Positions 46,742-54,535 of a DNA stretch of 64,000 nt are shown in pieces. Location: assembly GCF_013391105.1 (NCBI RefSeq), contig NZ_CP058335.1, forward strand, positions 3,348,001 to 3,412,000, in the 5' to 3' direction. Source of the stretch: Natronomonas salina (GTDB taxonomy: Archaea; Halobacteriota; Halobacteria; Halobacteriales; Haloarculaceae). Numbering within the stretch: the first letter of the stretch is position 1; each line of letters starts with the position of its first letter. Under the pieces are notes generated by a model. The model was not told where the DNA came from and made no database searches. It saw only the letters and a program-made list of their open reading frames with translations. The position numbers and the translations under genes were made by a program.

Positions 46742-46785
46742 ATCAGGCACCAACTCCTGAAGGGGTGGGCTTGTCAGTGGACTCC
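46742..46785 (-). mobile_element. Solo right end of an IS1341-type element
   Basis: Bases 46743-46785 match the right end of the complete element (48383-48425) at 40 of 43 positions, including TCAGGCACC and GGGGTGGGCTTGTCAGTGGACTCC. On the minus strand it still encodes SPLTSPPL, the last residues of TnpB. No transposase body follows; a decayed regulator lies at 46793 instead. Confidence 0.85.
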
Positions 46786-48077: not shown

Positions 48078-48381
48078 TCATCCATTCCGATACTCCTCCA
48101 CTTCGACGACCTGTTTAATCTCCTCATGTGTGATGTCGCTATCGGCGGAGACGACGGGTGCGTCCAATTCCCGACCCACGGCAAGAATTAGACCGTCCAT
48201 CCCTGTAAGGAACGGACCTTCTGGTCCAATCTCGTCGGCGATCTTCCCCGCCAGCGCTGCTGTTTTCTCTCCCGTCTCGTAGACTTCTCCCCAGGAGAGA
48301 TCAGCCTGCACCTCCGCAATATCTCCATCAGGTGCATTCCCTTCTCCAACAAGTGCTTCGGCGTAGGCCGGTGCAGGGAGG
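48078..48381 (-). pseudogene. vapC: 3' part of a vapC toxin gene split by a TnpB element
   Basis: The minus strand encodes LPAPAYAEALVGEG...DLSWGEVYETGEKTAALAGKIADEIG, GMDGLILAVGRELDAPVVSADSD and a normal stop. Joined to the 5' part at 49794-49888 it gives 399 bases, 132 codons plus stop. PIN acidic residues then fall at Asp5, Glu40, Asp94 and Asp112. The frame is otherwise undamaged, so the insertion is recent. Confidence 0.92.
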
Positions 48382-48600
48382 GTCAGGCACCCACCCCTAA
48401 AGGGGTGGGCTTGTCAGTGGACTCCCGCTCTGACCACCAGTATCAGTGGCAGGCGTAAACTCGCCGTTCGCGTGCAGCGTCCCTGACTTCAGGGCCACCT
48501 GACAGTCGGCCCCTCCAGGGCCAGACGTGTGCCAGTCCTGGAGGAATCGCCACGCGATGTTCCGCGCGGCATTGTAATCGGCATGTAGTTCCTTCCCGCA
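48382..48600 (-). ncRNA. Expected TnpB guide RNA (omega RNA) region
   Basis: In characterised TnpB elements the guide RNA overlaps the 3' end of tnpB and runs through the right end into flanking DNA. Here that would be about 48600 to 48382, ending in the 48390-48409 hairpin and GGTGCCTGAC. The guide would then begin CCTCCCTGCACCGGCC, which is vapC sequence. The 5' limit is not visible; the call rests on family knowledge and the right-end structure. Confidence 0.5.
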
Positions 48601-49653
48601 GTCCATGCACTCGAACTCGTCGCCGTCACGGTTGTTCTCGTGGGTGAATCCGCACGTCGAGTGACTGCACCGCTGACTCGTATAGGCGGGGTCGACCGTC
48701 TCCACCAGGACCCCGTACTCTTCGGCCTTGTACTCAGTGTACTGCTGAATCAACCGGAACGCCCATTGCTGGAACTTCGAAGCGTTCGAAATCCGATCAC
48801 GGATGGCAGATAAGTCTTCGAAGGCGATTCCAGCACAGTCGTGGCGACGAGCTTCCTGCACGATGGCTTTCGAGACGCAATGGAGATAGTCGTCGCTCCA
48901 TCTGGCAAACCGGTCACCGATGCTCTGTATAGTTAGATGAGATGACCGAGTGCCAGTCTGCTGGAGACGACCACGCCGCCGTTCGTACTCGCGACGCTTG
49001 TGGTTCAGATAATCGGCCTTGCCGAGGAACTGGCCCGTACTGGTAACGGCCAGAAAGCCGTCAACGTTGAGGTCGACGCCGAGAACCACTCCGTTCTCGA
49101 CTGTCGACACGTCCGTCTCCGGCTCCTTCTCTATGGCAATATGAAGGTAGTACTCACCGTTCCGCTTGTGCAGCGTCGCTTCCTTACGCTCCCACTCCTC
49201 GCGATTCCAGTAATCCTCAAACGGTGTACCGGTCTTGTCTTCGGGCATGACGTAGTCGGCGCGAACACGCCCTTCGACAGTAGCAAGCGTGCAGTGATCT
49301 TCGCTGTACGTGATGGTGCGGTCGCCGTAGACGATGACCGACCCGCGGAACGTGGGTTTGCTCGCCGTGCCACCCTCGAACAGTCGGTCTTGACAGTTCA
49401 ATAGAGCTTCGGCAGCGAGCCGCCGCGCCGATTGAACGTGATTCGAGTGGAGATCGGTCTGAGCGCGTACCTCGTCGTAGGTGGCAGCGTTGAGGTCACG
49501 TTGGTTAGTGATGATATCGCGTGGGTCGTCGGCCCATCCGTGATCCGCAACGTACTGGGCAGCTTCGCGGAACTGCTCGAACGTTGCATCAAGCACGCTG
49601 TGAGCGTCCGCTGGCACGTCGAGTTTCACCTGGATGTTCCGGACGACCGTCAC
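48397..49653 (-). CDS. tnpB: TnpB RNA-guided nuclease
   Basis: This 418-residue TnpB has a complete RuvC site: Asp194 (GVVLGVDLNVDG), Glu279 (AGIAFEDLS) and Asp359 (LHADYNAARN). The zinc ribbon has Cys329, Cys334, Cys349 and Cys352. Family members use an RNA made from their right end to cut DNA next to a short motif. The start is GTG 49653. The last ten residues (SPLTSPPL) are encoded in the right-end hairpin, where the guide RNA scaffold is expected. Confidence 0.95.
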   Translation of the reverse strand: MTVVRNIQVKLDVPADAHSVLDATFEQFREAAQYVADHGWADDPRDIITNQRDLNAATYDEVRAQTDLHSNHVQSARRLAAEALLNCQDRLFEGGTASKPTFRGSVIVYGDRTITYSEDHCTLATVEGRVRADYVMPEDKTGTPFEDYWNREEWERKEATLHKRNGEYYLHIAIEKEPETDVSTVENGVVLGVDLNVDGFLAVTSTGQFLGKADYLNHKRREYERRRGRLQQTGTRSSHLTIQSIGDRFARWSDDYLHCVSKAIVQEARRHDCAGIAFEDLSAIRDRISNASKFQQWAFRLIQQYTEYKAEEYGVLVETVDPAYTSQRCSHSTCGFTHENNRDGDEFECMDCGKELHADYNAARNIAWRFLQDWHTSGPGGADCQVALKSGTLHANGEFTPATDTGGQSGSPLTSPPL

Positions 49654-49793
49654 ACCGCCCGTTGGCTGCGTTATCGTACATAAAGGTTGGACCGGGACCG
49701 AGGAGTCGGCCTTGCGAGCACCAAGAGACGTTGTACTGGAGCGGACGTGCTTCCTCCCACGGCTGAAGCCGTGGGTTTCCGCGCTGCGGTTTT

Positions 49794-49888
49794 ATGAATC
49801 GTTTGTCCTCATTGTTTAAGAGGTACTCAGCGGCTTCGTCGACACCATCTAGATAATCGATGAGGAAAGATGCGTCCAGGACTTTCAT
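49794..49888 (-). pseudogene. vapC: 5' part of the split vapC toxin gene
   Basis: The minus strand encodes the first 31 codons (KVLDASFLIDYLDGVDEAAE, then NNEDKRF) and two bases of the next codon, ending ATTCAT at the transposon junction. Its ATG overlaps the vapB stop by four bases. Residue Asp5 is the first PIN metal ligand. Confidence 0.92.
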
Positions 49889-54290: not shown

Positions 54291-54462
54291 GACTACCCGC
54301 AGCGTAGGAAATGAGGGGTGAATATCTTCTGGTCGATTCAGCCTATCCAGCCAGCGTCCGTATCCAGGCTGACAAGCTGGAAGCAGAGGGTTGGAGAGTA
54401 ACTGAAACTCTGCGATTAGAAGCTACGCACTGCTGGTCGTCGAGTACGAAGATGGGGTGAAG
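54291..54462. other. Region 3' of the tRNA, possible decayed frame
   Basis: Plus-strand bases about 54350-54455 read VRIQADKLEAEGWRVTETLRLEA and then, after a shift, YALLVVEYEDGVKW, as if a small protein had decayed. No family is recognised. It lies on the 3' side of the tRNA, the usual side for integration. Confidence 0.3.
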
Positions 54463-54535
54463 TGGGCCGGCACGAATTTGAATCGTGGTTACGGCCACCC
54501 GAAGGCCGAAGGATACCAAGCTACCCCACCGGCCC
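54463..54535 (-). tRNA. tRNA-Pro (anticodon CGG)
   Basis: The minus strand folds into a full cloverleaf of 73 bases: acceptor GGGCCGG/CCGGCCC, a D arm with AGCTTGGTA loop, anticodon stem CGGCC/GGCCG around TTCGGGT with anticodon CGG, a 4-base variable loop, and T stem CACGA/TCGTG around TTCAAAT. The discriminator is A, as usual for proline. It reads CCG codons. CCA is not encoded. Confidence 0.95.

What the first reader, a model, noticed from the sequence alone, without database searches (positions are those of the whole stretch)
48370..48440. Predicted TnpB guide and target motif: the nuclease would cut the empty vapC allele
In the IS200/IS605 group the TnpB guide RNA ends at the right end and its guide is the flanking DNA, while the motif next to the left end is the TAM. 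Here that gives TAM TTCAT and a guide starting CCTCCCTGCACCGG from vapC. If TnpB is active it would cut chromosomes that lack the insertion, and so keep the insertion in place. All RuvC and zinc residues are intact.
Basis: partly seen in the sequence, partly recalled or inferred. Interest (0 to 1): 0.7.

Follow-up and report, generated by a model that had tools for sequence, protein, structure and literature searches.

The report
TnpB element carrying a vapC guide
A small jumping gene has landed inside a toxin-antitoxin gene of a salt-loving archaeon, and its ends predict an RNA-guided enzyme that would recognise copies of that gene still lacking the insertion; it is a well-preserved but ordinary member of a known family (TnpB), with its target motif now worked out from relatives.

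Summary
A tnpB-only IS200/IS605-group (IS1341-type) element fills 48382-49793 on the minus strand of a haloarchaeal chromosome, inside vapC of a vapBC pair. TTCAT (49794-49798) abuts its left end; CCTCCCTGCACCGGCC (48381-48366) follows its right end. Intact vapC homologues run through the site without duplication; four carry TTCAT exactly there.

TCAT abuts the left end in 33 of 36 relatives. The base before it is T throughout the outer clade but free in the nearest clade, so TTCAT is one base over-specified.

The guide RNA is strongly supported by evolution: the last 183 nt of the element form an RNA fold with 19 compensated base pairs, mostly inside the tnpB reading frame, and tnpB's synonymous rate collapses there. 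RuvC D-E-D and four zinc cysteines are intact; dN/dS is 0.11-0.21.

Not shown: transcription, cleavage, or any full natural target outside the species (nearest sampled allele: 3 guide mismatches of 16). No transposase with matching ends was found in this genome or among the genus loci examined. Most likely it keeps itself in place as proposed for ISDra2 TnpB: a new member of a known kind.

The parts
48382..49793 (-). tnpB-only IS200/IS605-group (IS1341-type) element, 1412 bp, inserted in vapC without target duplication
   Evidence: Ends shared with copies in the same genome (88% and 77% identical) and with relatives; site uninterrupted in intact homologues
49794..49798 (-). TTCAT next to the left end; the conserved motif is TCAT (49794-49797), predicted TAM and insertion target
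   Evidence: TCAT in 33 of 36 relatives at the same offset; host sequence in intact vapC homologues
49756..49775 (-). Left-end hairpin CCCACGGCTTCAGCCGTGGG
   Evidence: Perfect 8-bp stem; DNA fold z = -3.3; same position in relatives
48397..49653 (-). tnpB, 418 aa, RNA-guided nuclease; stop codon lies in the loop of the right-end hairpin
   Evidence: NCBIfam guided_TnpB 188 bits (cut-off 100), Pfam Cas12f1-like_TNB 81 bits; dN/dS 0.11-0.21
49072..49074 (-). RuvC-I aspartate D194
   Evidence: Invariant in 29-sequence alignment; aligns with the RuvC-I motif of solved Cas12f structures
48817..48819 (-). RuvC-II glutamate E279
   Evidence: Invariant
48577..48579 (-). RuvC-III aspartate D359
   Evidence: Invariant
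48382..48564 (-). Predicted omegaRNA scaffold, 183 nt, overlapping the last 55 codons of tnpB
   Evidence: 41 consensus pairs, 19 with compensatory changes; synonymous constraint; covariance model R1 finds it at the 3' end of 6 tnpB genes of this genome
48390..48409 (-). Right-end terminal hairpin CCCACCCCTTTAGGGGTGGG
   Evidence: Stem sequence replaced wholesale but still paired in relatives
48382..48385 (-). TGAC, last bases of the element and scaffold; stands where the TAM would be and so shields the inserted copy from its own guide
   Evidence: Invariant in 35 scaffolds
48366..48381 (-). Predicted guide (first 16 nt): CCTCCCTGCACCGGCC, from vapC
   Evidence: Directly follows the right end; only exact match in the genome
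49794..49888 (-). 5' part of interrupted vapC (PIN-domain ribonuclease toxin)
   Evidence: Colinear with intact homologues, PF01850 and VapC family in L038
48078..48381 (-). 3' part of interrupted vapC
   Evidence: tblastn matches to annotated VapC/PIN proteins of haloarchaeal plasmids, up to 79% identity
49885..50124 (-). vapB antitoxin gene, intact
   Evidence: PF02697 VAPB_antitox, 55 bits

Best explanation
This is a non-autonomous tnpB-only element of the IS200/IS605 group that inserted next to TCAT inside vapC. Its transcript runs through the right end into vapC. TnpB (or another nuclease) trims it to a scaffold of about 183 nt ending in TGAC, followed by a guide of about 16-20 nt read from vapC. 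The complex would recognise TCAT followed by that guide, which exists only where the element is absent. There it would make a double-strand break that is repaired from a copy carrying the element, so the insertion is kept or copied back. The inserted copy is safe because TGAC, not TCAT, precedes the guide. Shown here: element ends, insertion site, conserved left motif, conserved RNA fold, intact catalytic residues, purifying selection. Inferred from ISDra2 and relatives: transcription, processing, cleavage, repair.
For: Ends and empty sites. TCAT in 33 of 36 relatives at one offset. RNA structure: 97.1% of cells paired against 30-45% when partners are slid, 154 double-change cells against 40.8 in shuffles. 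Synonymous constraint: codons 364-418 dS 0.13-0.50 against 0.49-1.51 in the rest of the gene and highest codon identity there. Intact D194/E279/D359 and zinc cysteines. Fold resembles Cas12f and TnpB ternary complexes. Guide unique in the genome and preceded by CTGAC at the element, not TCAT. Mechanism shown or proposed for ISDra2 (PMC8612924), omegaRNA made from tnpB mRNA (PMC10278001), haloarchaeal sense-overlapping RNAs at tnpB 3' ends (PMC8303175; PMC12558985), IS spread by TnpB on plasmids (PMC11870625).
Against: No transcript or cleavage data. No tnpA in the element; the genome's single Y1 transposase sits in an element with different ends, so excision may be rare or absent. No sampled genome holds a fully matching empty allele. 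The structure model is of moderate confidence (mean pLDDT 70.5, zinc-binding region below 50).
Confidence: 0.8

Rival explanations
1. The protein and RNA are functional as a class, but this copy is a stranded passenger: with no compatible transposase it is not excised, so its nuclease has nothing to cut and the insertion stays by inertia.
For: tnpB-only; the one TnpA in the genome has different ends; no sampled allele of another species matches the guide fully; nearest copy in the genome is 88% identical, so no recent burst.
Against: Purifying selection (dN/dS 0.11-0.21) and intact RNA fold indicate function over the long term; different insertion sites in each relative show the lineage does move.
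Confidence: 0.4
2. The right-end hairpin is only a DNA hairpin for a transposase or a transcription stop; there is no guide RNA.
For: IS200/IS605 transposases do bind such hairpins (established knowledge); no terminator-like site was found beyond it.
Against: Compensatory pairs extend 183 nt, with five of six helices lying wholly upstream of the terminal hairpin, largely in the coding region, with matching synonymous constraint. A DNA hairpin at the end would not need these.
Confidence: 0.04
3. A nuclease-dead, RNA-guided regulator derived from TnpB (TldR-like), controlling the vapBC promoter or transcript.
For: Element sits inside a toxin-antitoxin operon.
Against: RuvC D-E-D residues intact and invariant; ends, TAM and varied insertion sites of relatives indicate a mobile element, not a fixed regulator.
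Confidence: 0.03

Closest known systems
ISDra2 TnpB of Deinococcus radiodurans (PMC8612924)
   Same: TnpB with RuvC D-E-D and zinc finger, guide from DNA beyond the right end, TAM identical to the insertion-target motif at the left end
   Different: TAM here TCAT, not TTGAT; no tnpA in the element; protein about 14-18% identical in the structural alignment and with a CX4C first zinc pair; not biochemically tested
Haloarchaeal sotRNAs / omegaRNAs of IS1341-type tnpB genes, Rfam RF02656 sot0042 and RF02657 sot2652 (PMC8303175, PMC12558985)
   Same: Sense RNA overlapping the 3' end of tnpB in a halophilic archaeon, structured, of similar size
   Different: The window does not match either Rfam model at the gathering score or at E up to 1; the two models hit other loci of this genome, below cut-off. 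The RNA here is a separate family captured by model R1
AsCas12f (PDB 8j12, 7wju, 8dzj)
   Same: Best sequence (E about 1e-27) and fold match in the PDB; same RuvC and zinc motifs
   Different: Cas12f takes guides from a CRISPR array; here the guide comes from the insertion site

Membership tests
TnpB (OMEGA nuclease) | RuvC D-E-D catalytic residues | tested here: met
   D194, E279, D359 invariant
TnpB (OMEGA nuclease) | Four-cysteine zinc ribbon in RuvC insertion | tested here: met
   C329, C334, C349, C352 invariant; first pair CX4C; PF07282 81 bits
TnpB (OMEGA nuclease) | Structured RNA over the 3' end of tnpB ending at the right end of the element | tested here: met
   19 compensated pairs, synonymous constraint; that it is transcribed was not tested
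TnpB (OMEGA nuclease) | Left-flank motif conserved across insertions (TAM) | tested here: met
   TCAT in 33 of 36
TnpB (OMEGA nuclease) | RNA-guided, TAM-dependent DNA cleavage | not testable with these tools
   Needs biochemistry or plasmid interference
IS200/IS605 group | Insertion 3' of a short fixed motif, no target-site duplication, subterminal hairpins | tested here: met
   Empty-site homologues, hairpins
IS200/IS605 group, autonomous member | Y1 transposase tnpA in the element | tested here: not met
   Left end lies about 140 bp before tnpB and the right end follows it, in this element and in relatives; hence tnpB-only, IS1341-type
Rfam sot0042 / sot2652 | Match above gathering score | tested here: not met
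TldR (nuclease-dead TnpB regulator) | Loss of RuvC catalytic residues | tested here: not met
   Residues intact

The most novel reading that the evidence does not exclude
In this haloarchaeal lineage tnpB-only elements may persist without a dedicated transposase, by TnpB cutting uninserted alleles and gene conversion fixing the insertion among the many chromosome copies of a polyploid cell; while sister lineages have changed TAM together with insertion target (TCAT, TTCAT, CAYCT).
Probability: 0.15. Interest if true: 0.55.

Novelty: new member of a known kind. Interest (0 to 1): 0.33.

Why it matters
It turns a prediction from one copy into a clade-wide, testable one: a defined 183-nt omegaRNA, a TCAT motif and a unique guide. 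The haloarchaeal TnpBs at about 50-90% identity with TCAT, TTCAT and CAYCT left flanks are a natural series for finding which residues read the TAM. The biological principle itself is already known from ISDra2.

Tried and rejected
Rfam search of the window at gathering and permissive thresholds gave nothing credible; the HEARO match (E 0.05, opposite strand, far below cut-off) was rejected. Off-target search: apart from the junction itself only one 16-mer has a single mismatch in the genome, and TCAT there is one base out of register. Viral contigs: four exact 16-mer matches, none preceded by TCAT. Searched for an autonomous partner: Y1 transposase loci of the genus whose ends resemble this element have other left flanks (for example TTAC in L182), none TCAT; not every locus was fetched. 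The solo right-end fragment at 46743-46785 was considered as a second guide source and rejected: broken stem, no scaffold, not found by model R1. Literature searches for a published TCAT or TTCAT TAM in haloarchaeal TnpB found none in the open-access set; absence there is not proof of absence.

Full report
Setting. The window is part of a 3.75-Mb single-contig haloarchaeal genome (G000:C1:3348001-3412000). On the minus strand, tnpB (48397-49653, 418 aa) matches NCBIfam guided_TnpB at 188 bits (cut-off 100) and Pfam Cas12f1-like_TNB at 81 bits.

Element and site. The element is 1412 bp, 48382-49793. Copies at 88% and 77% identity elsewhere in the genome, and relatives across Halobacteria, share both ends and differ beyond them. 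It has a left-end hairpin (49756-49775) and a right-end hairpin (48390-48409) whose loop holds the tnpB stop codon. It interrupts vapC, downstream of an intact vapB (PF02697). Instead I fetched intact homologues from the family: they run through the site with no extra or missing bases, and four of them (L194, L195, L196, L198) have TTCAT precisely where the window has it. So TTCAT is host sequence, and there is no target duplication, as expected for the IS200/IS605 group.

Target motif. Among 36 non-redundant left flanks of related elements, TCAT starts 12 or 13 nt before a fixed landmark in 32; a 33rd (L076) was mis-anchored by the script but shows TTTCAT. The three exceptions (L059 TTATC, L084 TTCAG, L090 TTCGT) differ by small changes. 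The base before TCAT is T in all 21 outer-clade members but A4 C3 T2 G2 in the clade that includes the window. A sister clade at 51-60% protein identity has CAYCT instead, 12 of 13 by eye and 11 of 13 within the preset offset.

Guide RNA. The 3' portion of tnpB shows exceptional synonymous conservation from codon 364 on: codon-identity excess 0.54-0.68 against roughly 0.03-0.45 elsewhere in near relatives. dS between the window copy and seven relatives is 0.49-1.51 over codons 2-363 and 0.13-0.50 over codons 364-418. An alignment of 35 such regions (A1), all ending in TGAC, gives a 41-pair consensus fold with 19 pairs showing changes on both sides. Paired cells are 97.1% against 30-45% with partners slid by one to three columns, and double-change cells 154 against 40.8 in shuffles. 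The shuffle control does not remove relatedness, so the slid control and the number of separate helices carry the weight. Most helices lie in the coding region, so this is RNA structure and not only a DNA hairpin. A covariance model (R1) finds six copies in this genome, each at the 3' end of a tnpB (one search compared). The predicted guide therefore starts at 48381: CCTCCCTGCACCGGCC.

Nuclease. D194, E279, D359 and C329, C334, C349, C352 are invariant in 29 relatives. No nearly invariant column outside conservative positions is lost in the window copy. dN/dS over codons 2-363 is 0.11-0.21. The predicted structure (mean pLDDT 70.5, zinc region poor) matches AsCas12f best (E 4e-18) and TnpB complexes (8iaz, 8h1j, 8exa).

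What it would cut. The exact 16-nt guide occurs in the genome only at the element's own junction, where it is preceded by CTGAC and so is not a target. One site with a single mismatch has TCAT one base out of register. Intact vapC alleles of other species have 3 to 10 mismatches in 16. A full target exists only where the same species' allele lacks the insertion: after excision, on another chromosome copy, or in DNA received from a relative. Haloarchaeal polyploidy and DNA exchange (general knowledge, not tested) make the last two realistic. ISDra2 TnpB cuts such a rejoined site and was proposed to restore the element by homology-directed repair (PMC8612924); TnpB-driven spread has been shown for plasmid copies (PMC11870625).

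Limits. Transcription and cleavage were not tested. The element has no tnpA; the only Y1 transposase of the genome (G000:C1:1761836) lies in an element with dissimilar ends. How this lineage moves is therefore open, although its many distinct insertion sites show that it has moved.

Verdict. The finding is real and its reading largely right, with the motif trimmed to TCAT. It is a new member of a known kind; the TAM variation among sister haloarchaeal clades is the most useful by-product.

Noticed in passing
window 46743-46785 (-): A 43-nt fragment 93% identical to the right end of this element, with a broken stem and no scaffold, about 1.6 kb away; apparently a decayed solo right end.
   Followed up: partly
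L011, L012, L013, L023, L024, L035, L067, L068, L072, L073, L077, L083, L088 (left flanks): Sister TnpB clade (51-60% identical) has CAYCT rather than TCAT beside the left end in 12 of 13, suggesting that TAM and insertion target changed together.
   Followed up: partly
L058, L072, L077, L088 (left ends, about 1800-1900): Left-end hairpins of several relatives carry long palindromic inserts within the hairpin, as if another small element had inserted into the loop; L017, L031, L032 show comparable extensions in the right-end hairpin.
   Followed up: no
L039 around 720-870 (G009:C15:49894-50037): A relic matching the omegaRNA model (E 5e-15) without a recognised tnpB lies about 0.6 kb from an intact vapBC homologue in another species.
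   Followed up: partly
G000, 17 TNB-domain loci over the family cut-off: The genome holds 17 PF07282 TnpB matches over the cut-off but only one Y1 transposase; only six of the TnpB loci carry an RNA matched by model R1, so several omegaRNA families coexist.
   Followed up: partly
window 54462-54535 (-): tRNA-Pro (CGG), the only tRNA gene in the window.
   Followed up: no
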